From Cinnamomum chago (Eukaryota > Streptophyta > Magnoliopsida > Laurales > Lauraceae), in assembly GCA_038049695.1 (NCBI GenBank), contig CP142459.1:68874001-68938000 (forward strand): a stretch of DNA of 64,000 nucleotides, in the 5' to 3' direction. Positions 2,551 to 24,596 of the stretch are shown here, in pieces; the stretch's first letter is position 1, and each line of letters opens with the position of its first letter. The notes beneath the pieces were generated by a model that saw only the letters and a program-made list of their open reading frames with translations, had not been told where the DNA came from and did no database searches. The translations under genes and the position numbers were made by a program.

Positions 2551-3998
2551 TAAGACAAACCACCTCACTTATTATAGCAGCTCCTTTATAGTGGCCATAT
2601 CAAATTCACTCGCCATTTTCAATCTGGAATATTTGAGAATGGCTCCCTACCAGAGTACCTTTTATTTAGATTTCGAACCCTCAATATGCCATTCTTCTTG
2701 CATGTGTAGATACTCTTTCACGTTTATTGGCTTTCTTTCAACTTGTGCGCGCTACTATTCCAACTTGGATAACTAGTGAGAGTTCTCACCTAGCTATTTA
2801 AGTTTTCACCTGGATAACCATGTTTCAAACACTTGATATGCCCTATTTTTGTGTGTGCAGGCTTTCGTCTCACTTGTGTTAGTTTTCTTCTCACGTGTGC
2901 GGGCTACCGTTTTCACTTAAGTGGGCTGCCTTTCCCGTGCGTGCGGACTCCCTCTTGGGTCCTAACTTACCAGGCTTTAGTAAAAAAAACACAAAGAAAG
3001 AAATCAGGGGACATTTAATGAGATGATTTTTTTTTAATTAAAAATCAACACAACAAACCCTCCTCTTTTATGGGGTGGAAATGTATCATTGTTCATATCA
3101 TAGTTGAGGAGTGAATGAAGACACAGTATAAAACTATAAAATGTTCTTATAAATACATGTATATGACCATCTACGATTAACTGATGCTGGTTTAAGTTTA
3201 ATGCTTCTCTCTCTATGTGACCCACGTAGTAGCATGCTTTGCGATTCATCAGGTACATGGGCCACCTATGTCAAGCTGACAGCTGCCAAAAACTGATATT
3301 GATGTTGATATATAGAACCATAACCAGGCGGTCCAGGCCTTTTGTCTTTTTAACATTAAACTACCACCGAACCGATCGCTTGTTTGGATCAATCATGGGG
3401 ACAGGGGATCCGTTTTCAACCACCACTTCGCAGCTACGTGGAACATTTATTTTCCATCAGATGGATGTCGTTGGAGGTTTCAAGGTCTCTTAACCCACCT
3501 TGTAGTTCGGTTTCTTTTGAAGTCCTTTTGAAAAGGAAAGTGGAGATGGAATTCCACGATGAGAAGGGAATTTTGAATTCTAGTAGAATCTGCGAACCCC
3601 CAGTTTTTTAAGTTAAAAAGCCAAGACCCTTTTTCTACTACTAGTGGAGCCCTTTTCGTGCAAGATACATACTCTTTCCGTATGATAATCTGAAAAAATA
3701 AAGTCATTGAAAAATCCAATATTAATTATCCCAATGGAGAATGACCCGGTAACAAATTAAGTAATTTACAATCACTCATTGTTCTTGTGAAATTTAGTAA
3801 AAGCTTCAATAGAAAAAAGTAAGAAGAAGATTGAATAACAAGATATATGGAAGGAAACTAATTTTAAAAAAAGAGTTGAAAACTAACATTTTCTGGCCAT
3901 ACATGATTAGGCAAAACACTCACCAATTTCAATATAGATCGATAGTCAAGCCTATTTCCCATTAAAATTTGATTAAAACCTAGCGCCAAATACATACC
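2551..3998. other. Intergenic, no gene recognised
   Basis: This is AT-rich sequence with several short open frames that show no domain or codon signal. I see no transposon ends inside it. It borders the outer end of the giant inverted repeat at about 3999. Confidence 0.5.
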
Positions 3999-4567
3999 AA
4001 ATTCAATGAAATAAAATACTAACCAACCAAAACAGCACCCAACTCATACATTTAAATGAATCAACAACAAATCACAAGGATTCCAATCAATCTTTGGCAT
4101 TCTCATCTCTTCCTCTGACAAAAATTGCATCTTTACAGGCATTGAGATCGGAGTTGAAATTTTCTACACATGAAAATCTCAACTAAAATTTCTCATTTGA
4201 GTTCTTGCAGTGAATGAACAAATTCTTCAAACACAACCCTTTTCATGATCATTTGAGCTAAGCATTCTATTGAAATATAATAATACTAAGTGGGGCCCAC
4301 AGATGTGTAGTTCTCTTTGATTATATATATAATATAATAATACTAAGTGGGGCCCACGGATGTTAGAGAAAATGCATGACAAGTTCTTCTACTAAGTAAG
4401 GCTCACAAATGTGTAGTTCTCTTTTATTTTATATATAATATAGTAATACTAAGTGGGGCCTATAGATGTGTAGATGTAGAGTAAAAGCATGACAAGTTCT
4501 TCTACTAAGTGGGGCCCATAGATGTGTTGTTCTCGTTTTATTATATATATATATAATATAATAATAC
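3999..4567. repeat. Giant inverted repeat, left arm, outer part
   Basis: The first 280 bp are unique sequence whose reverse complement recurs at about 23605-23894 with only scattered differences. From about 4285 it changes into tandem units of AT-rich sequence around GTGGGGCCCAC (exact at about 4292 and 4349, degenerate at about 4453 and 4510). The arm is interrupted at about 4567 by the Mutator-like element and resumes at about 13172. Confidence 0.8.
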
Positions 4568-4890
4568 AAAAAATACTTTAGATAACCAGTTGGCCAAAAG
4601 AAACACTTTAACCGACCGTGTACCAGAACAATCAGTTTGCCTGAAACGGTGTTTTTTTTTAAAGAGTTTCAACTAGCGTCCCGAGGGACCTTATTTTTAT
4701 TAAGCTAAGGGTCCCTAGGGACCCTACGGCGGACATAAATTAGAATAAAAAAGGCATTTTGCTCGTGTTTTGTTGTCAAGGCTTCACATACAGGTTCCTT
4801 TGCGCCCATTTATTCCTCGAAAAACTGTGGTCCCCTCCAACATCTGTTTCGGGTGCTGCTCCTGCTCATCGCCCTTCTACCAACTGTGGT
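4566..4890. repeat. MULE left terminal inverted repeat
   Basis: It matches the reverse complement of 12830-13165 over its whole length with scattered substitutions. It includes the palindromic block GGGTCCCTAGGGACCC, which resembles the motif in the internal 75-bp repeats. Just inside it, TTTGTTTGGTGGGGAACATT occurs twice (about 4968 and 5057). Confidence 0.88.
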
Positions 4891-4959
4891 CCCCTCCCAC
4901 ACGTCTTTGTCGAAGGTTTCTGGCCTTTTTTGAGTCGTCTAGGCTGGATTGTCTTCTAG

Positions 4960-5942
4960 GTTGGGCTGTTTGTTTGGTGGGGAACATTAAAGTGCATTAA
5001 AGCCACCTCTTGAAGGTCATTCCCACCTCTTGAAGACCATTAAAGCCACATGCCTTTGTTTGGTGGGGAACATTAAAGTGCATATGATACTCTGTTTGGG
5101 GTAGAGCAATGGAAATGTGAAGTTTGTATTGCACCCTAAAACATGATTTTCTACCGTTGATAAACCCTTTTCATAATACCTAGTTGCACGTAACCATTTC
5201 TACATGCATCTCATTGTCTTCTTCCCCACAACATCCCATCATAAAAAAAATAGACAGATTGAGATTTGAAATCAAAGTGTTTGTGCTTTCCTTTTCCTTT
5301 CCAATATAAGTACTTCTGTCATGATAATAAGAAGAAATATTGTATTTTTATCACGACCATTGATTAAAAACCCATTGGGCCCTTTCAAGGGAAATAACAA
5401 ACCAGATTGCTGACAACTGTGTGATTGATCTAAGATTTTGAAGGTGATTGATATTTGTAGATCTCAAATCCAACAGTTAATGACTTGAACCAAATGTTTC
5501 AAACTAAGATAGAGATTGGCATGCAAACATCTTTGATATGATTTTTTATGTTTTTATTTTTCACTGACATTGATGTGAGAATAATATGGACCAAAAGAAA
5601 TGTCAGCATACAATTGAATTTTGGGTTTTAGAGAAACTGGTAGATAACATAAAGAAAATGATTTGAAATAAGTTATGTGATTAGAAAGAACATAGAGAAT
5701 CATATATGAAAATAAAATCTTCATTTGATTACCACTTGGGGTTGTAAAAAAAGCAAGATTAATCGAATCAATGTTATCAGAAATAATTGTACCACTGCTG
5801 ATGAATAGCCTTACTTACCAGTCAACTTCCAAATGGACTTGTGGTATTGAACAAATGTTCCTTTTGCAAATTATATATGTTCAGTGAAGCATATTTGTTA
5901 TTACTGATTTAACCAACTAATATGAAATGTTTTAATATTGCA
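4960..5942. other. MULE subterminal and 5' leader region
   Basis: This is AT-rich sequence between the left terminal repeat and the first recognisable transposase exon. It should hold the transposase promoter and first non-coding exon or start codon, but I cannot identify either. The first coding block begins after an acceptor-like TTGCAG at about 5942. Confidence 0.4.
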
Positions 5943-8347
5943 GTATTCCTTCGGATGTTGATGTCCTAATAATATTACATTATGATGGTAATTTTCAATC
6001 CGATCTCAAAGGTCCTCAATATATCGGAGGAAGACAAAAGATGAGGCATCTCCCTAAAACCATAACATATAGTGAGCTGGTGAACGTAGCATTCGAAGCA
6101 TCAAACTGGGAAGCAAGTGTGGAAGCGTTATGTATAAAGTACCTTCTTCACAATGGAAGTTTTTTTTCATTGATAGACATTGATGATGACAATGATGTAA
6201 AGGGAATGTTCAGAGCTTCGGGGACTTATCCAAGAAACAATATATTGTTGTTCGTTCCAAGAAGGGAAGGAGACACATATGCTACCAAAGAAACCCCAGA
6301 AACCAGGTTCGTACGTAGTGAAATTTATTTTTAATCCATAATTGTGTTTATATAAATCCAAAGTTAATTGATCCATGTGTTTTTTATACAGAAACAATAA
6401 GAGCCAAAGAAATAAACATCAACGAGAATCCTTGATCAATGAAATTAGGTTAACCAAAGCAAAAGAGTTGGTGATCGAGCCACACACGAAAACGAAAGAA
6501 CATAGTTCAAACAAGGAGCAACAATTTCATGTTCCGGACGAGTGGATTACTAGAGGGTTGAACGATGCAACCACCAAGCAGAACTTCACAATAGTGGACG
6601 CGATAGTGCCCGAGGCAATCATATCTGAGGAGGGAGTTGATTCAGCAAGGGAGATGTGGTTGGGTCGTAAGTTTAACGATCGTGAAGCTTTCAGAAGATG
6701 CATTGCAGAGTTTGCAATTTACAGTAACTTCACGTTGGAGCATGTGCGCATCAACATGAAGCAAGTAACTGCGCGCTGCAAAGATGTAAATTGTCCTTGG
6801 AGAATACATGCGTCCATGGTTGAATCGGGACCATATTTCAAGGTGCAGAAATACATAGCAATTCATTCTTGCTCGAAGCCTATGATGGGGACAGCTCATC
6901 CATAGGCATCTGCGAGGTTAATAGCAGATTTCATTAAAGAGAGGGTACGATACAATAATGATATAAGACCAAAAGAGATAATCAGTGAATATCAAATGGA
7001 GTTTGGTACCCTAATCAGCTACAGGAAGGCACACATGGTTAAGGAAGTTGCTCTGCACAAGGTTCGAGGGTCGTATGAAGAGTCGTTTCAGATTCTACCA
7101 CTGTATTGTAATGAGCTTAAAAGGATAAACCCGGGCACAGTGACCAACATCGACATCACATCTAATGACCGTTTTAGACGTTTCTTTTGGGCATTTGGTC
7201 CCTGCATTCGAGCTTTTCAAAACTCTTTGCTACCATTGATAGCAGTAGATGGGTCACATCTTCGTGGCAAATATCCCGGTGTTCTACTAGTAGCTGTGAC
7301 ACATGATGCAAATCATCAGCTATTTCGAATTGCATTCGCCGTTGCTGAATTAGAGCGTCGTGACAGCTGAGAGTGGTTCCTTGCAAACTTATATATGTCA
7401 TTGGGTGAACCGAATAACCTCACAATTATTTCGGACCGTCAGAAGGGCCTAATCCCTGCAGTTCAAGCCATAATTCCTAGTGCACACCACTGTTTCTGTT
7501 GTAATCATATAGTGGAAATATTAAGGCATCCTTTAATGATGTAGGCATTTTGAGGAAATTTTGGAAAGTTGTGCGGGCTTATAGACCTTTTAAGTATGAT
7601 GTATACATGAATGACATATTGTCGGTTGATCAGCGTGCTTATAATTACATTGACGCAATCGGGCGTCAAAATTGTGCAACGACTTTTGCACATAGACGCC
7701 GTTACGACATGCTAACTAGCAACGCCGCGGAGTGCACAAATAGCCTGCTTAAGGACACAAGGGTTCTACAAATTACAATGCAGGTTGAAGAAATACGTTC
7801 AAAACTAATGGAATTTTTTGAAAGACGGCATGCGCAAACGCAGAAGATTATGTCACGTCTGACTCCTTATGCAGAGAAGTACTTGAGCAATGAAATTGAA
7901 GAATCTCGCAGACTGCACGTTCGTGTCGTAGGTTTGGTAGAGTTCCAGGTGCAATCAAGTGAGTACGTCGATGTCGTCAATCTCGAGTGTAGATCATGCT
8001 CGTGCCGCAAATGGGAAGTAATGGGAATCCCATGCTCACATGCAATGGCTGCAATGAAAGTTCGGAATATTGATCCATATGATTTATGTGAGCACTGGTA
8101 CCATACGCCCATGTATCAGATGACCTATAGCGAGGTTTTACATGCAACCCGTGATAGAAAACAGTGGGAGTCGTGCTCTTGTGAACGTGTTCTTCGTCCA
8201 TTAGCAAGTAAGCAGCCGGGTCGGCCAAAGAAGAATAGGGTTCGGGTGGAAGACCGCAACCGCGTCAGAAGGGTTGTAACCTGCTCCAACTGTAAAGAGA
8301 GGGGACACAATCGGGGGACTTGCCATAATCCTCCAGCTATTCAGTAA
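5943..8347 (+). pseudogene. mudrA: mudrA-like MULE transposase, inactivated
   Basis: Encodes a MuDR-type DDE transposase that would cut and move the element. Exon 1 (5943-6311) carries the MuDR N-terminal domain and joins after a GT-AG intron to exon 2 at about 6391 (ETPETR/NNKSQ). Domains in order: the MuDR DNA-binding region (about 6640-6900), the catalytic core with first Asp in AVDGSHL (about 7246) and second Asp in IISDRQKGL (about 7420-7450), a SWIM zinc finger with C-x-C and C-x-H (about 7996-8043), and a CX2CX4HX4C zinc knuckle (about 8281-8322). Three lesions are visible: TAG at 6903-6905, TGA at 7368-7370 where the family has Trp (DS-W-EWF), and a 1-nt deletion near 7517 that moves the frame. 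The start codon was not found. Confidence 0.88.
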
Positions 8348-8735
8348 AGGAACCAGTTTTTGGTTTTTTTATGTCTAATATCACATGTAATTTTTTGGGT
8401 TTTGTTTATGCATATTAACAACAAATTTCAACCGATTTAATGATATTTTGTTTCAAATGGTTATTTATGGCTCCTTTTTTATGCATACGAACAGCAATGT
8501 AATCAGAAGAAATTTAATGACATGTCAATGACATTTTGTATTTTTCCAGATGTAATGTTCCATCTGGCTTCCTCTTGGTTGTTAATGTATAATTTCCCTC
8601 ATTTCGTTTTATTTTTTTCCCTTGAATAATTCCAAATTCAAGTTGGATTTCCCTTTGCAGTTATATTGGAATGGACCTTATCTACCCATAAAGACTACTT
8701 TTGCTATGCACTTTGTCTTAATATGTATTTGAAAA
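8348..8735. other. MULE spacer between the two converging genes
   Basis: This is AT-rich sequence after the transposase stop. It probably contains the transposase 3' end. I see no coding signal. It runs directly into the 75-bp tandem repeats. Confidence 0.5.
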
Positions 8736-9150
8736 ACAGATGTTGATGCATGGGTCCCTACTGACTCTTATATTTAACTAATATCGGTCGTAAGGGATGC
8801 AGGGAAGGAAACAGATGCTGTTCAATTGGTCCCTAGGGACCCTTATCTATAACTAATATCGGTCGTTAGGGACGCTGGGAAGGAAACAGATGCTGTTCAA
8901 TTGGTCTTTAGGGACCCTTATCTTTAACTAATATCGGTCGTAAGGGATGCAGGGAAGGAAACAGATGTTGTTCAATTGGTCACTAGGGACCCTTATCTAT
9001 AACTAATATTGGTCGTAAGGGATGCAGGGAATGAAACAGATGCTGTTCAATTGATTCCTATGGACTCTTATCTATAACTAATAAAGGTCGCTAGGGACGC
9101 TGGGAAGGAAATTTGGGCTGCTTTATGAGTCGTTAGGGACGCTGGGAAGC
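8736..9150. repeat. 75-bp tandem repeat, about 5 copies, inside the MULE
   Basis: The unit contains GGTCGTAAGGGATGCAGGGA, a GGAAACAGATGCTGTTCAAT block and CCCTAGGGACCCTTAT. By counting, the period is 75 bp. The CCTAGGGACCCTTA and TAGGGACGCT motifs are also present in the terminal inverted repeats, so the array looks built from terminal-repeat-like sequence. It lies between the 3' ends of the two converging genes. Confidence 0.85.
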
Positions 9151-9437
9151 TTGTGTGTTTAAATCACTGTAAATTAACAACAACTTTACAATTGTTGCCT
9201 CATTACATCAAAAATCAACTTCAACTTCAACAAATAAATCTCAACCCAAACAACAATTTCATTACATCATTTTCACAGAAAATAACAACTTCATTACACA
9301 TCATACATCAACATCCAAATAAATTTCATCCAAACTACGCGTTCTTTACATCATTTTCATCCAAAAGAATACCAGTTCATTACATCAATTTCACCAAAAG
9401 AATTTCATACGTCCTTGGCATATAATAAAACATAAGT

Positions 9438-11020
9438 CTATAAAGCTGGGAAGTTCGGGAGTTGAAGCCTGTCAGCATTCATAAGCCAACTTCTCTTGAA
9501 TATTTCAACCAAAATCTTCCGACGATAGTAGGGAATGTTAGCCTGGGTGAACTTTATCTGGCGACGGTGTATGCAGTGCTCCGCGTATCCAATAGCAAAG
9601 GAACCACAATCCGTCCCATTCTGCTGATAAGGGATATCAGTCTTTGTGATGTTCGTCCACACCCATGGCTCACCCCATCCGAAATCTCCAAATCGCTTAG
9701 TTAACCACATTCTCTGTTTACAAATTAAGTAGGAAAAAAAGTAAATAAATAATAGCATGCGAAAGGGCAATCCATGAATAACAAGAAATTGATGGGTTTT
9801 ATACTCACGAAACCATCATAAATATTCTGTGTAAGGTTATTGAGTTGTTTGCGTACGGTTCTCAGCCTTGTAACGTGGTGGATTCCTCCTAGCCTGCTGT
9901 GCCATGTGATTGTCAAGGGGAACTGAATGTCATTATTAGGTCATGCCCAAGGCTTTATCACTCGGCCGATTGCCATCTCGAGTAGGCCCATATCTGTAAA
10001 ATTGTCAAAAATATATTGTTGTTAGTGCATACCAACTTTGTAAAAGACTAATGCATTCAACAAAACACTATGATTAATACAAACCTGGAGCAGCTGGAGA
10101 GGGCCTGACAAACTCTTGAATGTATGTTCGAACGCATCACTCTCGTCTGTTGGGTCAATACCAACTGGTTTGCCATCCGAACCAACATCGGTTTTCTTTA
10201 GCCCAGCCCACCTCACTCCCTTGTTCAACATTCTGTATAGGTTGGCCAGACAAGCGGGGGCCCAGGCATAGGGTTTGAAATCCCTAAATAATTCAAGTGC
10301 ATATGCGGGCCCCCTAGAAGAAGAAGCGTTTGAATTGATCTGTCCCGAAACCAAGAAAAAGAAGAAATGCTCTAGTATTGTAAACCTCTTGCTCAGCACT
10401 AAGTTTCTTCTTCATCTTCTTATTATTTCCTTGATCAGCCTGGATCCAGAAGTGTTGTTCCAACCATGTGTACTTAATGGATATTCCACTGAAATCTACA
10501 CCCATTTGGGGTCGAAGGCCTAGCAATTCTTCACACAAATCTGCGACGTTTGCACTAGGAAATGTTATACCGGTGACAGCCGGTCCATTGATTGGTAGTC
10601 CGTAGATATATGCAACATCCTCTAGTGTCACTGTCGCCTCGCCGATGGGAAGGTGAAATGTGTTTGTTTCTGGGCGCCACCGCTCCACCAAACCGGTAAT
10701 CAATGCGTGATCTATTCTAATCCACCTCATCTGTGCAAGGTGGTATAGTCCGGACATACGAACATATTCTAGCTGCCTCTCGTTTAGATGCCATGTCCCG
10801 TAATCAGGGTTAGTCGGAATGCATCTATAAGTACCAAGCTCCTGTCAACATGTAAAAGAGAGCACGTAAAAAACCATGCATTGACATTCAATTGAAAATG
10901 GTAGGTGGTTTAGCAACATACAATCCCATTATATATGGCTGAACTAATATGTGTTTCCTGCTCAGAGAGAAGATCAACTGTAGCATTTTCGTTTGCATTG
11001 TTGCTCTCTGCTTCAGACAT
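9438..11020 (-). pseudogene. Plant mobile domain (PMD) gene with Ulp1-type C-terminal exon, decayed
   Basis: Transcribed towards the transposase gene. Exon 1 (11020-10922) starts with ATG, encodes 33 acidic residues and ends at GT. Exon 2 (10841 to about 10085) encodes a plant mobile domain (aminotransferase-like PMD, PF10536 type): YHLAQMRWIRIDHALITGLV, ERWRPETNTFHLP and LPINGPAVTG. Exon 3 (9993-9809) continues with WHSRLGG. Exon 4 (9713-9438) ends in a Ulp1/C48 cysteine-protease C-terminus: IPYQQNGTDCGSFAIGYAEH holds the oxyanion Gln and catalytic Cys. The catalytic His and Asp of such proteases were not found. Frameshifts near 10330-10360 and in exon 3, plus an in-frame stop after KPWA, show decay. 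PMD genes and Ulp1-like proteases are each known as passengers of plant Mutator elements. That both belong to one transcript is inference from phase and spacing. Confidence 0.72.
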
Positions 11021-11570
11021 CTGTCAGTTACAATCAAAAGCAACAATATTAACCCATAATAATATTACCTCAACCGGGTCTGCCAGAGAAGGATGGAAAG
11101 ACAGTGTACAGAAAGGTCAAGTTTGGAGAATGCACTGCTAACTACTTTGGAGCTACTCACCTAGGCAAAAAGTCGACACTGGACTTTACCAAGATCACAA
11201 ATGAGGAATGATGGGCCCAGGACTCAACAGTCCACATGCATATCTAAATAGATATTTGAATAAAATATAGGCAATGCCAATTGGGACCAGTGGATTGCCA
11301 AGACACATCCCAAAAGAATCTGGAGATTCCTTTGCATGTGACCTCCACCTCAAGAAGAAATTTCAACCTGAACCTTCGTAATAAAAGATGAAATTGATGG
11401 CATTTCTTTCAGTGAGCCCTATACCCCAATAGAAATTCTTCTATGATGTTAGTTGTATGATGATAATGGTGATGTGATGCCGTCTGTCTTTTGTTCCAGC
11501 TGGGCTTCATTGGGTCTGTATCTGCTCCTTGTCTTTCTTTTGTTTTGTTAATTTGTCTAGCCATTTGTTT
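11021..11570. other. MULE interior with an unidentified coding-like fragment
   Basis: A frame at about 11070-11210 on + reads as protein-like sequence (GKTVYRKVKFGECTANYFGA, then LDFTKITNEE followed by a stop and WAQDST). I do not recognise the family. It may be a captured gene fragment or part of an unknown element. The rest is AT-rich. Confidence 0.35.
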
Positions 11571-11890
11571 CCTTCTATTATGCATTCTGAAGCTAATGTC
11601 TTTGCCACAGCTACCTATCTATCAACATCCTCTAAGTGAAACAGTTGCAGGTCTCATCCCCTTAGCAGAACTTTTCCATCACCCTCATGATTACTCTCTA
11701 TATTTTTAAGGGTCTTTAACGGTGTCTGTTATTCCTAGTTAAGACCTTACACACCACACAAACTAGACCCACGATTCAAATGGTGTATCTTTCTTGGATA
11801 TAGTCTCAACCATAAAGGGATTACTGGTGGAGTTTATTTGTCTCGCCAAGTTGTTTTCAATTAGGATTTTTTCCCCTTTCAACAGACCTC
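11571..11890 (+). mobile_element. Copia retrotransposon fragment (integrase C-terminus)
   Basis: The + strand reads, with stops and frame changes, LFHHPHDYSLYF, then LRPYTPHKLDPRFKWCIFLG and YSLNHKG, followed by VYLSRQVVF and FFPF. This is the conserved end of Ty1/Copia integrase before the reverse transcriptase, where PHKL-P-S-C-FLGYS and SRHV-F-E-FPF are typical. There is an in-frame stop after VVFN. A Ser/Thr/Pro-rich linker may continue to about 12190. No LTRs are visible nearby. Confidence 0.75.
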
Positions 11891-12437
11891 TCAATCTTCT
11901 TCTTCCTCTGTTTCACCCACTTCAACCCACAGTTCTTTTTTAGCTTCTCATTGGTTCTCTTTTGTTTGCCCACTTTCCTCTGTTCTTAGACATGTTTCCA
12001 CTTCACATTGAAATTCCACACCCACCTCTATTTTAGGCCCTGTTCCTTCAATACTACCTGCCACTGGTACTACTATACCTCGCTTTTCACATTGCCCTTT
12101 CCTTGACCTCTCCCAACCACAAAGCAGTACTCCTAAATCTACTTCATGTCCTATCACATCCACTAAGGAATGTCTTATGAGTGTGTGTTTGATTGGAAGA
12201 GTCTGTAAAATTCTAGTTCAGAGATTTTTCAAATTGGCAAATGTTGATAGCTTAATCAATCTCTCATGAGTATTTAGAACTGTATGGTTCAAGAATTTCA
12301 AAAGTGAAAAAAACAAAAGCCAACTCAGTACACCCATGACACACTCTTCTTTTAATCATCCCCATCAAACACCTTTTTGTCCAACAATTTCTACACATGT
12401 GCTCCCTAATTTACATGAGCATTTGTCTTTGACAACC

Positions 12438-12620
12438 AGATCATGCATTTGTATTTAGCAAGTGATTCAGAACCAGAAACAATATAAACAAGATCATGCA
12501 TTTGTATTTAGCAAGTGATTCAGAACCGGTAACAATATAAACCAGATCATGCATTTGCCTTTGGCAAGCAATTAAGAACCTAAAACAATAGAAAGTAGAT
12601 CATGCATTTGTCTCTGCCCA
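12438..12620. repeat. 53-bp tandem repeat, about 3.4 copies
   Basis: AGATCATGCATTTG starts at 12438, 12491, 12544 and 12597, a constant spacing of 53 bp. The copies also share AAGTGATTCAGAACC. The array lies inside the MULE, 200 bp from the right terminal repeat. Confidence 0.85.
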
Positions 12621-12829
12621 TTGTCTTTCAAGAAAAGGCAAACGCCATTTTTAGGGCATTTTTCAAGCTATGAAGAGTATTGTTACACAAGGACGATGAA
12701 GACCCTTTAAAGTGATTTTAGAGTGGAGAGTACATGTCTACCACGAGGAAACAATAACCAAACGAAAAGGCATGGAGACGCAATTTGGGTTTGTCCTAGA
12801 TGACAATCCAGTCAAAAAAAGGCCAAAAG

Positions 12830-13165
12830 GGAGCACAGTTGGTAAGAGGGCAATGAGCAGGAGCAGCAGTCGAAGTAGATGTTGGAGGGGACCACAGTTT
12901 TTCGAGGAAGAAATGGGCGCAAAGGAACCTGTATGTGAAGCCCTGACAGCGAAGCACGAGCAAAACGCCTCTTTTATTCTAATTTGTGTCCGCCGCAAGG
13001 TACCTAGGGACCCTTAGCTTAATAAAAATAAGGTCCCTAGGGACGCTAGTTGAAACTCCTAAAAGAAAAATACCGTTTCAGGCAAACTAATTGTTCTGGT
13101 GCACGGTTGGTTAAAGTGTTTGTTTTGGCCCACTGGTTATCTAAAGTAATTTTTTTTTGTAAATT
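12830..13165. repeat. MULE right terminal inverted repeat
   Basis: It is the reverse complement of 4566-4890 with scattered differences. The outer end runs into TTTTTTTTGTAAATTCC. The same terminus is seen in a lone copy at about 19735-19897, which supports this as the real end of the family. Confidence 0.88.
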
Positions 13166-13171
13166 CCTCAC

Positions 13172-14820
13172 AATACTAAGTAGGGCCCACAGATGTGTAG
13201 ATAAAAAGCATGACAAGTTCTTCTACTAAGTGGTATAATATAATAATACTAAGTGGGCCTCACAGATGTGTAGTTCTCTTTTATTTTATACATATATATA
13301 TAATATAATTATATGAAGTGGGGCCCACAAATGTGTAGTTCTCTTGTATTTTATACATATAATATAATAATACTAAGTGGGGCCCACAAATGTCTAGATG
13401 TAGAGAAAAAGCATGATAAGTTCTTCTATTAAGTGAGACCCATAGAAGTGTAGTTTACTTTTATTTCATATATATATAATATAATATAATATAATAGTAC
13501 TAAGTAAGGCCTACAGAAGTGTAGAGAAAAAGCATGACAAGCTCTTCTCTTTTATTGGAGCCCACATATGTGTAGTTCACTTTTATTATATATATAATAT
13601 TATAATACTAAGTGGGGCCCACAGATGTGTAGAGAAAAATCATAACACTTTTTTCTCTTTTATAAGAAGGGCATAGATATTATATGATTATTATTATAAT
13701 ATAATAATAATATATTATGATATTATATTATATTATGATATTTTTGTGTGTGGGGGGGGGGGGGGGGGGGGAGCACATGTGTAGTGAAAAAGTATGCAAC
13801 TTCTCTTTTCTTTTATAATAAGGGTATAGATATAGATTTTATATTATTATTATTATAATATCATAATAATATATTATTATATTATATTATATTATAATAT
13901 TTGGGGGTGGGCCCCACAATGGTGTAGTGAAAAAGTTTGTATTATAATATTTGGGGTTGGGCCCCACAAAGGTGTAGTGAAAAAGTTAGCAATTTATCAT
14001 AATAATATATTATTATATTATATTATAATATTTGGGGGTGGGCCCCACAATGGTGTAGTAAAAAAAGTTTGCAACTTTCCCTCTTTTATAATAGTATATA
14101 TAATAGATAATAGATAGTAGATAGTAGACAGTAGATAATAGATAGTAGACAGTAGATAATAGATATTTCGGGGTGGGCCCCACAATGATGTAGTGAAAAA
14201 TTTTGCAATTTCTCAAAATAATATATTATGATATTATATTATGATATTATATTATAATATTTGGGGGTGGGCCCCACAATGGTGTAGTGAAAAAGTTTAC
14301 AATTTCTCATAATAATATATTATTATATTATATTATACTATTTGGGTGTGGGCCCCACAATGGTGTTGTGAAAAAGTTTGCATTATAATATTTGGGGTTG
14401 GCCCCCACAATGGTGTAGTGAAAGAGTTTGCAATTTCTAATAATAATATATTATGATATTATATTATAATATGCCCACAATGGTGTAGTGAAAAAAGTTT
14501 GCAACTTTCCCTCTTTTATAATAGTAGTAGATAGTAGAAGTAGATGGTAGACAGTAGATAATAGATAGTAGATATTTTGGAGGTGGGCCCCACAATGGTG
14601 TAGTGAAAAAGTTTGTAGTATAATATTTTGGGGTGGGCCCCACAAAGGTGTAGTGAAAAATTTTGCAATTTCTCAAAATAATATATTATTATATTATATT
14701 ATAATATTTGGGGGTGGGCCCCACAATGGTGTATTGAAAAAGTTTGTATGAGATAGATAGATAATAAGGGTATAGATATTATATTATTATTATAATATAA
14801 TAATAATAAATGATTATATT
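13172..14820. repeat. Giant inverted repeat, left arm, inner part (GTGGGNCCCAC arrays)
   Basis: Two kinds of tandem unit follow one another. The outer kind (about 13172-13680) has ACTAAGTGGGGCCCACAGA, then TGTGTAG, GAGAAAAAGCATGACA and an AT tract. The inner kind (about 13900-14750) has GGGGGTGGGCCCCACAATGG, then TGTAGTGAAAAAGTTTGCAA and an ATAATATATTATTATATTAT tract. Both kinds recur in reverse order and orientation at 21375-23640. A run of 20 G lies at 13752-13771. Confidence 0.85.
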
Positions 14821-15285
14821 TCTATCGATCTATATCTACATATCTACATCTACATATATACTCTTATAAAAGAGAGAAAGATGATGTCCTTTTTTCACTA
14901 CACACATAGCCAATAAAATGAAGTTGTGGGGCTTACCCTTATATATATTTATTATGGATAAAGATATAGATAAAGATGAGGACATAATGAGAATTTCCCA
15001 ACTTTTACTCTTATAAAATGTTTTAAAAAAAAGATAAAGATGATGTACTTTTTTCACTATACACATGCCCAATAAAATGCAAGTTGTAAGGCCCACCCTT
15101 ATATATATATATATATATATTTATCATGTACATGTATTTTATGTATGGATAAAGATGGGGAAATAATGAGAATTTTCTAATTTGTCTAAAATAGACTTTG
15201 GACTAGGCTTGAATTTAGAGGGGTTTTAAGGATCCGGATCACGATAATCTAGAAGACTAAAGTTTAGGAATTAAAAATATCTACC
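14821..15285. other. Short reversed repeat units and AT-rich spacer
   Basis: Two degenerate units at about 14860-14940 and 15000-15100 (CTCTTATAAAAGAGAGAAAG, CACTACACACA) lie in the orientation of the right arm, opposite to the units just before them. A (TA)10 tract is at 15101-15120. No coding signal. Confidence 0.5.
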
Positions 15286-18200
15286 CAACGGTACCATAAT
15301 CTTAAAAATCTAAAATTACAAAAAAGACCCCTAAATTCTCTGGAAAATTGCTAACTACCTCCCTACTATACCCAAATGGACTCGGATACAGACCAAACTT
15401 CGCACACACGATCCTAATAATTTTTTAATCTCTTATATTGAGTAGATGCTGATATTTTAAACAAAATAAAATTTCATTTTAATACATTCCAATAAATCGA
15501 GTAAATTTTTGTTCGATTTCTTTGTTTTTTTTTTTAAGGTGGTGAAGAAAAAAAAAGGAAAATGTGGATAAGACTAGAATCTATCTCAAATGTTGTTTTT
15601 CTCCCTCTTCTTTTTTCAAGTTTCTTTTAACATTCTTCTTATTCAGATACTACAAGATTTTCAATGTAGGAAATTTTGTGGGTATGAGGTTTTTCCTCTG
15701 TGAATAATTGTGTAAGGAAGAACATGATATTTTAACAGATTTTTCATTGACTCTTAGCTTCTTTTGGAATAGAGGGAGTTTTCATACATGTAAGTGTGTC
15801 TACTGAAATTATTATTGTTTGATTTTGTCTTTTTCTTTAATTTTTTTAATGTAAACTTTATATTGTTTTGTTATGTGAGATAAGAAAATCGAAAACTCAA
15901 ACAGAAAGTGTCCTGATTAAGAAAAGCAAAGTAGACAATAACTAAAAGGACGATGCTATGAGGCATTGAAAAACTTTACATTATCTGTCAGAATTTGTTT
16001 TCGTTCTCCATAAAGTCGAAGGGGAAAGGCTTTTTTTTAAGTAGTACAGGTGCAAATATTCAAAAGGCCAAACACATAATCCATATTTGTATAAGAATCT
16101 GACATTTTATTTTGTTTATTTTTCCTGTTTTAGTTTATGTTAGTTAAATTCTTACATTCTAGACCAATGCCTCTTCAATCGTCACCCTCCAAACCCATCA
16201 AGAGTGGGATAAGACCAATAAGCATTCATTCGTGGTTCTCATTGAACCATTTTGTTCACTAATTTCCAAATTTTTATTCTTTTGTTTTTTTTTTTGCCTT
16301 TAGTAAAATTAATTGTGAGATATGGTGCTATTAAAGAATCATGTTAAAGGAAAAATATTTCAGATTTTATCACTCAGAAAGTTTTTTTAGTCTTTCTTGG
16401 CACTATTTTGACCACCCCGGTTAATAAACTAAGCGAAGGTGGGAAAAACAAAAGATTTTAACTATGCACTATTTACTCCATTATGTGGTTCATGGTGTAC
16501 ATACTGCCTTTTAACTCTGAAAACCTGCTAAATGTCATGTTCTTTTTTAATAATAAACCTTGAACTAAGACAGGATGAATACAAAAAAGAAAATGAATAG
16601 TATATTTTATAATGGATCAAAAGAAAAGGAATTAAGTGTGTTTTACTTACTACTTTTTGGTGTTCAATACTTACAATCTTGTGGGCACTTTAAATACTTC
16701 ACCATTAGTTTAAAAGTCGTGACAAAATGTATTAGTTAGCTTGCTACTTTTGTTATTGTTGCTGGTGGTCAATTGGTGGTTGTGTTATAATTTAAATACC
16801 AAATTGACTACACACGAGAGAATTAACATTCTCTTCTTTTTTTTTTACCTAAAACAATGCTAATTGTGCAAATAGTTTCTATTTATTTATTTATTTATTT
16901 TTATTTTTATTTTTTGGTAGAACAAAAAGATACTTGAGTGGTATTTATATTTGAAATTTGAGAGTTCAGAACATCAGAGGGCTCTGAGAGGTTTCCAGAA
17001 TATATGAGATTATTTTCTTTATACGGATGTAACCCTTTGTTATTATTTTTTTAAATATTAACCCTTTAACCTTTTGTACACTACTTTAAATATTTGTAAT
17101 TTGATGTTGATTCAGTTGTATATTATTTTATTATATATTATGGCCTTTGAAAAAGGTATTGAAACTTCCAAAACTTATAAGCACATCCCATATCTACAGG
17201 TTTTTCGTTTGCATTATTGCTTTATGTTTAGCTTTTTTCTTTTTTTTTTAGAAAAAAGTAGCACCTGACAAAATATCATAAATAAGAAAGCGAAAGGCAC
17301 AAGCTTAAACTCATTTTATGTCCTTCTTGTTTTTTTCTCTCTTTTAATGAAAGTTACCATTAAAAAAATTAAATATTATTTTCCCTTTTGCTTCATGTGT
17401 TTGTATTTTATTTAGTTAGAATAACTGAGTTTTCAATCTGACATAATAGTTGTATTGATCTTGATTTATACCCCTGTTGGAAGAATAATCACAAATTGGA
17501 TAATGTGATAACTACTACTAAATATTAGTTCTCTTCCAATATTAGTGATTGCTAAAGATAATTCCATAAATGTAATTTAGTGGTAGGTCTTATAGATTGC
17601 TATCGTAAAATTGTTGTTGTTCTATACAATTTTTAGTTTCTTAATATACAACTTTTTTGAATTTTCTTATTATAAAAGGTTATTTCAAGGGCATGAATAT
17701 ATTTATTTATTCTTGCTCATACTCAAGAGATTTAAATTGAAAAACTTTGATCATTTTCTAACACATCTATTTCTTTCATCATTACAAGCTTCTTCTTCTA
17801 CTTCTTCTTGTCTTCTTTTCATATATTTCAATGAAGCGTCATGCCTTTTCTTAAAAAAAAAAATAAGAATCTCATAGCAACTGCTTGTTTTACTAGCGTT
17901 ACTACTAACTTCAGAGTCAGTGAATAAAGTAATCATTTTAAGAGTAAACAACTAAAATAAGTATTTGATGCTGAGTTGCAACAAATTCAGTTTGTTTTTG
18001 TTCGTTTTGAATTTTTCTTACTTTGATCAACACTCCCATCCTCTATACAAAACAGAGTAGAATAGTTGATCTAAAATACCTGTGATATATTCTTATGTAT
18101 TTATTACGAGGAATGTCCAATTCTTTTGGCAGATTTGTATATTTTTTGGTATTTTTTCCCTATGGTTATCTCTATTTGTGAGCTTCCATTTAACTAAACT

Positions 18201-19093
18201 TCTATGATTACTCTGTATTATCCTTTTCTTAAAGGGTATAAAATATATCACTTTGTATCAAGCAAAAGAAGATGCTGACTATTGGAGATGTATTGCCTTT
18301 TTTTACCTGATAGTAGTTCGTCTTATAAAATAAAACAAAGCACATGTTAAATACTAATATTGATCAACAGGTGCTCTGCAATTCTTACCCGTCAGAGTTC
18401 ATTTCATAGTTTCACCATTGTTGATCCCTGTCGCTTAAGGACAAGCCAGATTACTTCATTATTCTTGACGGTCGGTGTGAGATGTTATTCTTCTTTGTAA
18501 GTTAAGACTAAAACCACCATTTCAATTTTGTTATTCTGATGTCCTTAGGTAAGATATAATTGATTTTTTTCCTTAATAGATTCTGATTTGGTATTCAACA
18601 TATAATGTTCATGGTAATTGGTTAAAACAGTAAGCTCATCTAGTTTTTAGTTTTTATTTTTATTTTTTTTATAAAACTACAGATTATCAATTTGACGATA
18701 CTTTCGACTGGACTTCGACTGGACTTCAACTTTAGTAGGTCAAGTCTACCAGGAAACTGATAAGTCGACCTGACAGGTTAAATAAAGTAAATTTAAATTT
18801 CTTTGTACACATTCATGATTAAATATCTAGAAATATGTGATTTATATCCTCAAGAAGTTATATAAATTTCATATTGATTGTCTTTTGATATCTCATTTTT
18901 CTCACTATCTCATTATTTTATTGTTTTCAAATGTATTTGAAAAAAGCAGTGTCAGCTGCATTTGGACATTGTACGGGCCTTGCAATTTACAATCACTCAT
19001 TTTATGTTGAAATTTTATTTTTAAATGTATGGAAGCTTCTACTAATTTTTTTAAAAACTTTATTTTTTAAGAATTTTCTTAGTATAACTGTGT
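15286..19093. repeat. 3.8-kb duplicated module, copy A (uninterrupted)
   Basis: The sequence is collinear with 24597-30972 from CAACGGTACCATAAT to TATAACT-TGTG, with scattered substitutions and small indels. I recognise no protein domain. It contains long T-rich tracts and many stops in all frames. It shows the empty site (TTCAGTTGTATATTA, about 17113) into which the solo LTR of the other copy inserted. Confidence 0.88.
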
Positions 19094-21374
19094 GTCCGGC
19101 CCATATTCTATTTTTTCGTCTGCTTCTTGTTTTAGCTTTGTTATGGAGGAATATGGGTGGATTTAAATTTTGAATGATCTTTTTGCTCCTATGAAGGTTT
19201 GAAAGTGAACCTGCAGCGGAAAAATATCGCCAACAAAGAAGTAGAAGAGAATGCCAACGGTTTGGTTTGCTCTGAAAAGATCTCTCCACTGCAAATCAGA
19301 GCCATCAGATGTTCATGACCCAAGGGCCAGGAAAAAACTGAAATTTTAGCCCTTTCAAGGAATCTTTGGAGACCCCAACTATGCTTGTTTTAAGCCAACC
19401 CAGGCCTCTGGCGAGTGCAGATAGATGTCTAAAATTCAAGGAATCCATGGAGTTCCTAATTTGAACAGAGGGTATGGCCGTCTTCCCTCTTTGCTTCAAG
19501 GGTGAGTGCAAATAGAAGCTTAAACCCCGAAGCCTTCAATGGATCCAAGTCTTGATCTTCTTATTTTAGAAGAAAATGTTGCAGTCACTGCCAATAACCT
19601 TAAAAAATCTCTCTATCCTATGGAAGACCTTCCTTTTATGTTAAGCTTCAGTCACTTGAGCAAGACTTTTTATCTTTTAACCGAGAACAGGAAATGAAGA
19701 TGAGTTCTTTTCATTTATAAGCGTACACCACAAGGTGGTTAGGACCCTTAATGTTATAAAACAAAGGTTGATAGGGATGCTAGTAGAAATTGCTAAAAAA
19801 AATACGTTTTTGAGCAAAATGACTGATCTGGTGCAAGGTTAGTTAAAATCATATTTTCAGTCCACCGGTCACCTTTTTTTTTTTTTTGTAAAATCCTTAA
19901 AAAAAAAAAACCAACACAACACGCACACAAATTTTGCCATGTAGCTAAAACATTGCTGCTGCTGCCTCCAATCATGGAACAAGAAGCTTACCCCATATAT
20001 ATCCAGAGTGGAGTGGTCCAGTGCCACCTATCCCATGGACCTTTTGATTGGTCATTTTTGTCATCTATTGCCGGGTCATTTTGTCTATTCAATCATCCCT
20101 TGCTTAGTTGGATCTTTTAATAGGGCCGGGTCATACTAGTGAACCTCAGTACGTAGACTGGTGAAGAGATCATGAAAAGTTTTGGTTGGGACTTTTTAAG
20201 AAAATCCAGCCCATATACATGGAAGTGACAAACAATCTAACCATTAATTAATCTCGATATGGTCTTTTTTTTTTTTTTTTATGTGCTCATCCAACCTATT
20301 CATATTAGAATTAGCTCTAAACTAATAAATATTGGCCGATATTTCACCCTAATTGGATTGATATGTGCAGTCCCCATTGCTATGATCGAAATCTTTTGCA
20401 ATGCTCGAGGTAAGTGTGCAACTCTGGCCAGGCCAAGCCCAAGCCAGAATGCCTTGTCTGCATGAAAATGCAATTTTTGAGAGGTTCGGGCTTGATCTCA
20501 GCTTTATTTTTTTAAGTGCAAAAGTGCCTTGGGTCTTCAGATTTAGCCTTGGTATCCAAATCACAAGGTCAATATAGGATCCAGATTATTATTTAGTGGG
20601 GTAAAGAAATCACTTCAATCAAATACGAGACGAGACAAATGGAAATAACAGCATGCTCTTTTGAAAACTCCATGAGATTTAGTTGAGAAGACGAGGGCAC
20701 AGGTAAAGGTTGCAAACATGCTTGGCACTCTATGGCCATGTTGATTTACATATTAGAATCTAGTGTCTAAATATGGCATAAAAAGCGGCCAACACACTCA
20801 TGGTTGAATGGTGTTCGCACCTTTGTGTGTATGACACACACATGCCTAATAAATTCATTCCTCGGTCTTTCAGTTGCCGATACCACTCTTGGACAGCAAA
20901 GTATGGTTAAAAAGAAAAGTTGATAATGGGCCAAGCTTGTCCATGTATCCCTTTGAGTTCAGCCCACTTGGGCCCCATAAAAACCCATGAGATAGGATGA
21001 GGGTAGAAACTTAGGGGGCGCTTTGCTCTTATTTTATTGATTTAGAGCTTATTTGCATATTACATTTTTTGGTAAACCTCTAATTGTATTTTATTTATAT
21101 TACAAAATTAGAGTTTTTCCCAAAAAAAATCCCAATGGGCCATTTTCATCTATGGGTGTTTTGGATGAGAATAACCTCATAAAATTCTCAAAATGATACA
21201 AACGGTGTCTTCTGCATTATAATTTTTTGAAAAACACGTCCAATTACCACAATTCTTAAGAAACGTTTAAAAATAATTTTACCAAACAAACTAAATATAA
21301 TATAATACTCAATTAACATTGTAGATATTATGAACCCCCCAATTTTTTTTTTAATCTATCTATATCTATATCTA
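19094..21374. other. Central spacer of the inverted-repeat structure
   Basis: It holds a lone MULE terminal repeat (19735-19897) and otherwise mostly AT-rich sequence. The stretch at about 19200-19680 is less AT-rich and reads in places like decayed coding sequence, but every frame is short and I recognise no family. Confidence 0.5.
19735..19897. mobile_element. Lone MULE terminal inverted repeat (diverged)
   Basis: It aligns in order with the right end of the 8.6-kb MULE: AGGACCCTTA, AGGGATGCTAGT, ATCTGGTGCA-GGTTAGTTAAA, CACCGGT and the T-run ending in GTAAAATCC. It is more diverged than the two ends of that element are from each other. I found no partner repeat, so it is a solo end or a deleted element. 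Confidence 0.7.
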
Positions 21375-21796
21375 TATATCTATATATACTATATTATAAA
21401 AGAGGCAATGTTGCATGGTTTTTTCACCACACCACTATGGGGCCCACCCAAAATATTATAATAAAATATAATCATACATTATTATTATATTATAATAATA
21501 ATAATATAATATCTATACCCTTATTATCTATCTCATACAAACTTTTTTACCACACCAAAGTGGGGCCCACCCCCAAATATTATAAAATAATATATCTATA
21601 TCTATATATATATGGGGAGGTTTCAAGTGCATCCATCCCTCACCATAGGGTGAGGGATACTTCCATAATTGGGCATTTTCAATTACAAAAGTTACTTTTC
21701 AAGTACATAGGATGAGGTACACATCTTTGTCTTCATGTGCAAAAATGGGAAGTGTCTCTCACCCTATGGTGAGGGATAGATGCACTTGAAACTTTT

Positions 21797-21833
<37 letters not shown>

Positions 21834-23894
21834 TATTATAAAAGAGGCAATGTTGCATGATTTTTTCACCACACCAATATGGGGCCCACCCAAAATATTA
21901 TAATAAAATATAATCATACATTATTATTATATTATAATAATAATAATAATATAATATCTATACCCTTATTATCTATCTCATACAAACTTTTATACCACAC
22001 CATAGTGGGGCCCACACCCAAATATTATAAAATCATATAATAATATATTATTTTGAGAAATTGTAAAATTTTTCACTACACCTTTGTGAGGCCCACTCCA
22101 AAATATTATATTGCGAACTTTTTCACTACACCATTGTGGGGCCCACCCTCAAATATCTACTATCTACTATCTACTATCTACTACTATTTTAAAAGAGGGA
22201 AAGTTGCAAACTTTTTTCACTACACCCCAGCCCACCCCCCAAATAGTATAATATAATATAATATATTATTATTATGAGAAATTGCAAACTTTTTCACTAC
22301 ACCATTGTAGGGCCCACCCCCAAATATTATAATATAATATCATAATATATTATTTTGAGAAATTGCAAACTTTATTACTACACCATTGTGGGGCCCACCC
22401 CCAAATATCTACTATCTACTATCTACTGTCTACTATCTATTATCTATTTCTATTATCTATTATATCTATTATCTATATCTATCTACTATTGCAAAAGAGG
22501 GAAAGTTGCAAACTTTTTTCACTACACCATTGTGGGGCTCACCCCCAAATATTATAATATAATATAAGAATATATTATTATGAGAAATTGTAAACTTTTT
22601 CACTACACCTTTGTGGGGCCCAATCCCAAATATTATAATGCAAAATTTTTCACTACACCATTGTGGGGCCCACCCCCAAATAGTATAATATAATATAATA
22701 ATATATTATTATTTATATTATATTATGAGAAATTACATAAATTTCACTACACCTTTGTGGGGCCCACGCCCAAATATTATAATATAATATAATAATAATA
22801 TATTATTATATTATAATATAATAATATATTCTTATTATACTATTATAATAATCATATAATATCTATACCCTTATTATAAAAGAGAAAAAAGTGTCATGCT
22901 TTTTCTCTACACATCTGTGGGCCCCACTTAGTATTATGATATTATATAAATATATAATAAAAGAGAACTACACATATGTGGGCCCCAATAAAAGAGAAGA
23001 ACTTGTCATGCTTTTTCTCTACACATCTGTGAGCCTCATTTAGTATTATTATATTATATATATAATAAAAGAGAACTACACGTTTGTGGGCCCCACTTAG
23101 TATAAGAACCTTTCATGCTTTTTCTCTACATCTAGACATATATGGGCCCCACTTGGTATTATTATATTATATAGATATATAAAATACAAGAGAACTACAC
23201 ATCTGTGAGCCCCACTTCGTATTATTATATTATATATATGTATGTATAAAATAAAAGAGAACTATACATATGTGGGCCCCACTTAGTATTATTATAATAT
23301 CTGTATGCCCCACTTAGTATTTTTATATTAGATATATATATAATAAAACGAGAACTACACATCTATGGGCTCCATTTAGTAGAAGAACTTGTCATGCTTT
23401 TTCTTTACATCTACACATCTATAGGCCCCACTTAGTATTATTATATTATATATATAATAAAAGAGAACTACACATTTGTGGGCCCCACTTAGTAGAAGAA
23501 CTTGTCATGCTTTTTCTCTACACATCTGTGGGCCCCACTTAGTATTATTATATTATATTATATATAAGATCAAAGAGAACTACACATTTGTGGGCCCCAC
23601 TTAGTATTATTATATTTCGATGAAATGCTTAGCTCAAATGATTATGAAAAGAGTTGTGTTTGAAGAATTTGTTCATTCGCTGCAAGAACTCAAATGAGAA
23701 ATTTCAGTTGAGATTTTCATGTGTAAAAAATTTCAACTTCGATCCCAATGCCTGTACAGATACGATTTGCTTGTTGGAGGAAGTGATGAGAATGCCAAAG
23801 ATTGCTTGGAATCTTTGTGATTTGTTGTTGATTCGTTTAAAGCTATGAGTTGGGTACTATTTTGGTTGGTTGGTATTTTGTTTCATTGAATTTG
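21375..23894. repeat. Giant inverted repeat, right arm (GTGGGNCCCAC arrays)
   Basis: This is the reverse-oriented partner of 3999-4567 plus 13172-14820. Inner units (CACTACACCATTGTGGGGCC followed by CACCCCCAAATATTATA) run to about 22800. Outer units (TCTACACATCTGTGGGCCCC then ACTTAGTATTATTATAT) run to about 23600. The unique 280-bp outer block ends at about 23894 with TTTCATTGAATTT. The arm also carries a MITE (21613-21798) and a (TA)n tract that the left arm lacks. Confidence 0.85.
21613..21798. mobile_element. 186-bp MITE in the right arm
   Basis: Terminal inverted repeats of about 40 bp: the left end reads GGTTTCAAGTGCATCCATCC then CTCACCATAGGGTGAGGGA, and the right end is its complement with few changes (CCCTATGGTGAGGGATAGAT then GCACTTGAAACTTTTCC). 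It is flanked on both sides by TATATA, so a TA target duplication (Tc1/mariner type) cannot be told from the surrounding TA repeat. Confidence 0.75.
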
Positions 23895-24596
23895 CAATGC
23901 TACAAATGAAATATGTGAAATAAAATTGTGACATTTTAAACATTTAGTGCTCCAATAACATCCGACAAAGTGAACTTTGTGACAATAGAAAATCTCTTTT
24001 TAATGTTGGGGCTTTTTTTTATGTTACTGAAATAGTGAAATTTACTTAAAATTTTTATAAGCGATTAAAAATGAAGAAACGTTGAATATTCAAAAATGAC
24101 CAACAATGTTATAAATGAAATAGGATTTTAACATTCAGGAGAGGTAAAGACCGGTCGGACTTTTTTTTTCTTTTTTCTTTTGTATTAGTCAATTTGGTGG
24201 ATTGGTTATCTTGTATGTCGTCTTTGACATTAGTGGTTTTGCCAGAAGGTTTGGCCCATTTATAATTGTTTTTTAATCTTTTAATGCATTCCCCTCTTTC
24301 TGGAAAAAAATAAAAAATAAAAAATAATTGTAACATGTTACACATTTTAGTGCATCAAACTTTATAAGGAATAACAAAAAATCGTTCATGCGGTTCCTAA
24401 GAGTTATGGGGCTTCAGATTTTCATTAGTGGATAAAATGTAAAATCATACATGAATATTAAAAAATGAAAATCAAATAACTTCTCCTTTAATGGAAATTG
24501 ATTTGAGGAAAAATGAGAGATGAATGCTCATCCATCACCCAGGAAATCAAATCCCATGATGGTCAAGGTCCTTTTTGCATCCATAATTTTGTGTTT
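23895..24596. other. AT-rich spacer between right arm and module copy A'
   Basis: No gene or recognised repeat was seen. The matching position next to module copy A (14821-15285) is different sequence, so the duplication covers only the module and not its flank. Confidence 0.5.

What the first reader, a model, noticed from the sequence alone, without database searches (positions are those of the whole stretch)
13172..23894. Dozens of perfect class I TCP-factor sites amplified as tandem repeats
Each unit of the two arms has an 11-bp core of form GTGGGNCCCAC (GTGGGGCCCAC or GTGGGCCCCAC). By eye I find about 25 exact copies across 4285-4567, 13172-14820 and 21375-23640, and at least as many with one change. 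This is the palindromic consensus published for class I TCP transcription factors. The AT flanks vary while the core stays constant. The array could act as a TCP decoy, an enhancer cluster or a replication/recombination feature; all three are inference. TCP binding has not been shown here.
Basis: partly seen in the sequence, partly recalled or inferred. Interest (0 to 1): 0.75.

Follow-up and report, generated by a model that had tools for sequence, protein, structure and literature searches.

The report
Repeat arms carrying TCP-like motifs
A stretch of what looks like plant DNA has two mirror-image arms built from about fifty copies of a short repeat that carries a sequence TCP growth regulators could bind, but the motif seems to have multiplied along with the repeat rather than being kept for that purpose.

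Summary
The motif is real: 28 exact GTGGGNCCCAC sites in the window against 0.01 expected, 25 of them in 4,160 bp of arm. GTGGGGCCCAC and GTGGGCCCCAC are each other's reverse complement.

The sites are a fixed part of tandem units. The 46 aligned units share one orientation per arm. They form the arms of a long inverted repeat (about 3998-23894). A Mutator-like element (MULE, about 4568-13155) splits the left arm.

The core is not singled out for conservation. In units found without core or adjacent 3' block, 20/374 core and 15/344 block positions differ (p 0.60). Core changes are mostly C>T or G>A (30 of 37). The copies descend from few founders, so the shuffle figure overstates the case.

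Best reading: a foldback-like inverted repeat whose unit carries a TCP-type palindrome. TCP binding is untested. No target-site duplication was found, so I file it in no transposon family. Amplification of a TCP15/23 motif by tomato MITEs is already reported (passages).

The parts
3998..4273 (+). Left outer cap, the non-array end of the inverted repeat
   Evidence: Reverse complement of 23607-23894, 90.9% over 276 aligned bases; BLAST 3998-4570 vs 23894-23314, 91.6%
4274..4567 (+). Distal piece of the left arm array, outer-type units; 2 exact cores
4568..13155 (.). Mutator-like element nested in the left arm (right end 13155 by BLAST, perhaps 13167): about 326-bp TIRs (4568-4893 and 12829-13155), transposase ORF pieces on +, Ulp1-like peptidase and plant mobile domain on -. 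Not part of the arms.
   Evidence: TIRs; DBD_Tnp_Mut, SWIM, Peptidase_C48, PMD and a sub-cutoff MULE domain; arms collinear when 4568-13167 is skipped:
13168..13745 (+). Proximal piece of the left arm, outer-type units (core GTGGGGCCCAC followed by ARATGTGTAG)
13890..14820 (+). Left arm, inner-type units (core GTGGGCCCCAC followed by AATGGTGTAGTGAAAAAG)
14860..21350 (.). Spacer between the arms. 15286-17119 and 17129-19068 are direct copies of 24597-26445 and 29016-30955. No recognisable coding domain found.
   Evidence: identities 94.9% and 94.1% ungapped; Pfam on all 13 spacer-overlapping ORFs of 65 aa or more: 0 matches
21397..22790 (-). Right arm, inner-type units, inverted relative to the left arm; holds a MITE-like hairpin near 21612-21800 (by eye)
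22794..23606 (-). Right arm, outer-type units, inverted
23607..23894 (-). Right outer cap

Best explanation
The palindromes are a fixed part of a repeat unit of about 50-113 bp that makes up the arms of a foldback-like long inverted repeat. A founder unit carrying the palindrome was multiplied by tandem duplication, giving two sister unit types that differ in the middle base of the core. The array and its outer cap were then duplicated in inverted orientation. A MULE later split the left arm, and point changes now erode the copies. The conserved block (core plus the 3' GTGTAG tag) most likely served as a repeated end-recognition site of a non-autonomous foldback-like DNA transposon; that role is inferred from structure alone. 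TCP proteins may bind the sites as a by-product. Shown here: the units, their orientation, the inverted collinear arms, the nested MULE, and the lack of extra conservation of the core over its 3' block. Inferred: the order of events, mobility, transposase binding, any TCP binding.
For: Within each arm the aligned units have one orientation: 24 of 24 outer and 22 of 22 inner after dropping one chance hit and two cross-hits. The arms are collinear, 1906/2108 ungapped positions identical (90.4%), once 4568-13167 is skipped. 35 of 46 units have their nearest relative in the opposite arm (20/24 outer, 15/22 inner; about half expected by chance), so the array largely existed before the arms were copied, or the arms converted each other. 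Core and 3' block change at like rates at G/C sites: outer 28/216 vs 13/96, inner 9/198 vs 6/110. In units found without either, 20/306 vs 3/121 (p 0.15). Core changes are C>T or G>A in 30 of 37 cells. Tandem repeats inside long TIRs holding extra transposase sites are shown for Galileo (PMC3688188, abstract and discussion).
Against: No target-site duplication of 7-11 bp was found at the cap ends. The spacer holds no recognisable transposase: 0 Pfam matches in its 13 ORFs of 65 aa or more. Only one copy of the structure is in hand. In the inner units the core ranks 2 of 37 eleven-column windows for conservation, so a mild constraint there is not excluded. Two degenerate units of opposite orientation lie at 14890-15100, just inside the left arm (by eye), so orientation is not perfectly uniform. 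The spacer copies (K2P 0.054 and 0.062) match the distal array piece (0.055) but are less diverged than the cap (0.098) and the proximal piece (0.095), so the order of events is uncertain.
Confidence: 0.55

Rival explanations
1. A non-mobile minisatellite next to a cap sequence was copied in inverted orientation by a local rearrangement such as template switching. The structure is a segmental duplication, not a transposon.
For: No TSD at the cap ends. Much of the spacer is a direct copy of DNA 9-12 kb further on, so local duplication is likely here. No transposase in the spacer. Spacer copies and the distal array piece have like divergence (K2P 0.054-0.062 and 0.055).
Against: Internally repetitive long inverted arms are the usual look of foldback elements (PMC4079207, PMC3169594 passages). 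Cap, proximal and inner array pieces are more diverged (0.072-0.098) than the spacer copies, a weak argument against one shared event.
Confidence: 0.3
2. The array is kept as a cluster of class I TCP binding sites and acts as a decoy or enhancer for nearby genes.
For: 25 exact palindromic class I TCP sites in 4.2 kb, each readable on both strands. TEs are reported to have spread a TCP15/23 motif in tomato (PMC12595863 and PMC8725346 passages). The inner core ranks 2 of 37 windows.
Against: The core is no better conserved than its 3' neighbour. In the outer units it ranks 14 of 30 windows. 30 of 37 core changes are C>T or G>A. Intact cores are 22 of 34 (65%) where 71% would be expected at neighbour rates.
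Confidence: 0.08
3. The arms are subterminal repeats of a CACTA-type element; the inner unit contains TAGTG/CACTA next to the core.
For: CACTACACC recurs beside the core in the right arm, and TAGTG in the left.
Against: CACTA lies within internal units, and by eye the cap ends show no such terminus. No CACTA transposase domain was matched in the 26 ORFs scanned.
Confidence: 0.04

Closest known systems
Foldback-type elements with internally repetitive TIRs (Tm1 of root-knot nematodes, Tetris of Drosophila; FARE of Arabidopsis, Tnr8 of rice)
   Same: Long inverted arms with tandem units (Tm1 and Tetris: passages; FARE and Tnr8 seen only as mentions and citations)
   Different: No TSD found here, single copy in hand, units of 50-113 bp in two sister types, left arm split by a MULE
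Galileo (P superfamily, Drosophila)
   Same: Tandem repeats in long TIRs; there they hold extra transposase binding sites (PMC3688188 abstract and discussion)
   Different: No transposase linked to this structure, and no binding shown
Tomato MITEs said to have amplified a TCP15/23 binding motif
   Same: A transposon-type repeat multiplies a class I TCP motif (passages in two later papers; a look-up of the DOI I recalled for the primary paper found nothing held)
   Different: There, dispersed short MITEs; here, tandem copies within two arms at one locus
MuTAnT MULEs of Medicago
   Same: Foldback TIRs built of modules (passages)
   Different: 292-bp reference element with 144-bp TIRs, family about 200 bp to over 1.6 kb, 9-nt TSDs; no GTGGG string in that paper's main text

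Membership tests
Foldback-type DNA transposon | Long inverted arms made of tandem repeats | tested here: met
Foldback-type DNA transposon | Short target-site duplication at the element ends | tested here: not met
   No direct repeat of 9-11 bp (up to 1 mismatch) or 7-8 bp (exact) between 3955-4005 and 23875-23925
Foldback-type DNA transposon | Several copies at unlinked sites | not testable with these tools
   Genome search unanswered six times; viral-contig scans of two unit patterns gave 0, which is no test for a plant repeat
Foldback-type DNA transposon | Related transposase in some copies | tested here: inconclusive
   None in the 13 spacer ORFs of 65 aa or more; the MULE transposase nearby belongs to a nested element with other TIRs; other copies not available
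Functional class I TCP binding array | Sequence match to GTGGGNCCCAC or GGNCCCAC | tested here: met
Functional class I TCP binding array | Core conserved beyond its surroundings | tested here: not met
   (core vs 3' block); ranks the core 14 of 30 windows in outer units but 2 of 37 in inner units
Functional class I TCP binding array | Bound by TCP protein in vitro or in vivo | not testable with these tools
Mutator-like element (nested, 4568-13155) | TIRs plus mudrA-type transposase with DNA-binding and SWIM domains | tested here: met
   the MULE catalytic domain itself is below Pfam's cut-off (20.0 vs 27.6 bits)
Mutator-like element (nested, 4568-13155) | 9-bp TSD | tested here: inconclusive
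   An imperfect 9-mer by eye (4559-4567 and 13168-13176, 7 of 9 alike, sequence); the scan found only an 8-mer with one mismatch that reflects the repeat unit
CACTA element | CACTA termini | tested here: not met
   Cap ends read by eye
CACTA element | CACTA transposase | tested here: inconclusive
   No such domain in the 26 ORFs scanned; a non-autonomous copy would lack it
CACTA element | 3-bp TSD | not tested
   Too short to judge without a defined terminus

The most novel reading that the evidence does not exclude
A foldback-like transposon multiplied a class I TCP palindrome in its arms so that host TCP factors, which act in dividing tissue (recalled), open or assemble its ends, tying movement to proliferating cells. 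Its copies would then act as strong TCP sinks.
Probability: 0.06. Interest if true: 0.65.

Novelty: new member of a known kind. Interest (0 to 1): 0.27.

Why it matters
It is a clear case of how a dense cluster of perfect transcription-factor sites can arise by repeat growth, with no sign of selection on the site itself. If TCP binding were shown, the locus would be a natural test of whether repeat arms titrate or recruit host regulators. 'Known kind' here means internally repetitive long inverted repeats carrying an amplified TF motif; membership of a named transposon family is not claimed.

Tried and rejected
Core under special constraint: not supported by the counts, nor by the outer-unit ranking (14 of 30); the inner-unit ranking (2 of 37) leaves room for a mild constraint. 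In the outer-arm comparison the core even appeared more diverged than the rest (20/132 vs 58/767, p 0.007). I do not lean on this, because the A/T class there includes already decayed G or C positions and the alignment has local slips. A first core-blind scan (core 250/693, block 176/657, p 0.0003, again core more changed) took in many out-of-register hits because its mismatch limits were loose: 63 hits in the arms, 125 outside. It was replaced with a limit of 4, which gave 34 units in the arms and 3 hits outside.

MITE pairs as the source of the units: rejected, because orientation does not alternate among the 46 aligned units; two degenerate opposite units at 14890-15100 are the exception, read by eye. 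Cruciform units: 3 of 4 folded stretches are unremarkable (z -1.53, -0.47, -1.28); one holding two cores has z -4.29. Known RNA families: 0 matches at gathering score. Copies elsewhere: 0 in viral contigs, as expected for a plant repeat.

Dropped rows: I dropped one outer hit (53357) and two inner hits that are outer units (22927, 23538). The unit at 4347 (exact core) is missing from the 46. Damaged units near 13775, 14482 and 22226 and 23299 (read by eye) are also outside the 46.

No title or abstract start that they listed describes a foldback element carrying a TCP palindrome. This covers open-licence papers only, and the lists were cut (20 of 45; 10 of 40; 8 of 100). Papers first listed were not opened.

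Full report
What was checked. The window holds 28 exact GTGGGNCCCAC sites; 100 shuffles give a mean of 0.01. 25 lie in the arms (2 + 11 + 12) at 6.0 per kb, against 3 in the rest at 0.05 per kb. The two spellings are one palindrome read on opposite strands. GGNCCCAC, the class I TCP consensus quoted in PMC10049435 (passage), occurs 73 times, 61 of them in the arms.

Independence. The shuffle test treats sites as independent. They are not: the cores sit in tandem units that share a longer block. Outer units read TACTAA-GTGGGGCCCAC-ARATGTGTAG, inner units TTTGGGG-GTGGGCCCCAC-AATGGTGTAGTGAAAAAG. I infer one or two origins of the motif here, not 25. The three isolated sites show no unit flanks by eye (sequence).

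Architecture. The aligned units of the left arm point one way and those of the right arm the other (24 outer and 22 inner units after the drops listed under Tried and rejected). Two degenerate units of opposite orientation sit just inside the left arm (14890-15100, by eye). The inverted repeat runs beyond the array into a cap: 3998-4570 against 23314-23894, 91.6%. Skipping 4568-13167, the left arm aligns collinearly with the right at 1906 of 2108 ungapped positions. The skipped stretch is a Mutator-like element: about 326-bp TIRs at 90.8%, DBD_Tnp_Mut and SWIM domains, a sub-cutoff MULE domain, an Ulp1-type peptidase and a plant mobile domain. Its TSD is unclear. It is an intruder in the arm, not the owner of the arms, since its TIRs are different sequence.

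Spacer. 15286-17119 and 17129-19068 repeat 24597-26445 and 29016-30955 in direct orientation (94.9% and 94.1% ungapped). The downstream copy is interrupted by 2.57 kb with TG...CA ends and an AGTTG duplication, which reads as an LTR-type insertion (by eye). Pfam gives no match in the 13 ORFs of 65 aa or more that overlap the spacer (listed; scanned).

Is the core special? Against the unit majority, G/C sites change at 28/216 in the core and 13/96 in the 3' block (outer), and at 9/198 and 6/110 (inner). Sliding an 11-column frame over the units, the core ranks 14 of 30 (outer) and 2 of 37 (inner). In units detected with neither core nor block, 20/374 core and 15/344 block positions differ (p 0.60), and 22 of 34 cores are intact where block rates predict 71%. 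Between the inner arms, core differences are 2/55 against 23/280 elsewhere (p 0.40); between the outer arms 20/132 against 58/767 (p 0.007, core more diverged, but see Tried and rejected). Core changes are C>T or G>A in 30 of 37 cells, consistent with decay of methylated DNA (methylation not tested). So the core travels with its unit; a mild constraint in the inner units is not excluded.

History. 35 of 46 units have their closest relative in the opposite arm, where about half would be expected by chance, so the array was largely in place before the arms were copied, or the arms converted one another. K2P is 0.098 for the cap, 0.055, 0.095 and 0.072 for the distal outer, proximal outer and inner array pieces, 0.096 for the MULE TIRs, and 0.054 and 0.062 for the spacer copies. 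These figures do not fix the order of events.

Function. The best structural match is to foldback elements, whose tandem TIR units can hold extra transposase sites (Galileo, PMC3688188, abstract and discussion). I infer such a role for the core-plus-tag block, with no transposase in hand and no target duplication at the caps. For that reason it is called foldback-like and not filed as a member. A local inverted duplication of a minisatellite remains a fair rival. TCP binding is plausible from sequence, and spread of a TCP15/23 motif by MITEs in tomato is reported in passages of two papers, so the idea of TE-spread TCP sites is not new. Decoy, enhancer or origin roles have no support here.

Limits. 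The host species is not known; that it is a plant is inferred from the plant mobile domain and the MULE. Its genome could not be searched. No binding, chromatin or methylation data were at hand.

Noticed in passing
4568-13155: A MULE with transposase, Ulp1-like peptidase and plant mobile domain; its TIRs and a 75-bp minisatellite between its genes (8734-9111) carry another palindrome, GGTCCCTAGGGACC (8 matches with up to 2 mismatches, all 8 inside the element). A second case of a palindrome multiplied in a transposon.
   Followed up: partly
15286-19068 and 24597-30955: Direct duplication of about 3.8 kb, one copy between the arms, the other ending about 400 bp before an acidic-protein ORF at 31356-31886 (0 Pfam matches; from memory it resembles the start of a CHR19-type SNF2 protein).
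   Followed up: partly
26445-29016: 2.57-kb insertion with TG...CA ends and an apparent AGTTG target duplication, absent from the spacer copy (by eye); looks like an LTR-type element. One ORF in it (26977-27354, minus) gave 0 Pfam matches.
   Followed up: partly
21612-21800: MITE-like hairpin (GGTTTCAAGTGCATCCATCCCTCACC... and its inverse) inside the right arm, with about 190 bp of array repeated on both sides (by eye; the flanking units pair as nearest relatives at 0.97 and 0.95).
   Followed up: partly
14890-15100: Two degenerate units in the opposite orientation just inside the left arm (by eye).
   Followed up: no
19640-19925: Stretch resembling a diverged MULE TIR inside the spacer, seen by eye only; the self-BLAST (150 bp or more) did not list it.
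   Followed up: no
45480-46208: Reverse transcriptase ORF (RVT_1), with neighbouring ORFs from 44662 to 47363 that look LINE-like by eye; 44662-45426 itself had no Pfam match.
   Followed up: no
13752-13771: A run of 20 G replaces the core in one unit of the left arm; possible assembly or slippage site.
   Followed up: no
201-1244: AMP-binding enzyme gene fragment (PF00501, PF13193).
   Followed up: no
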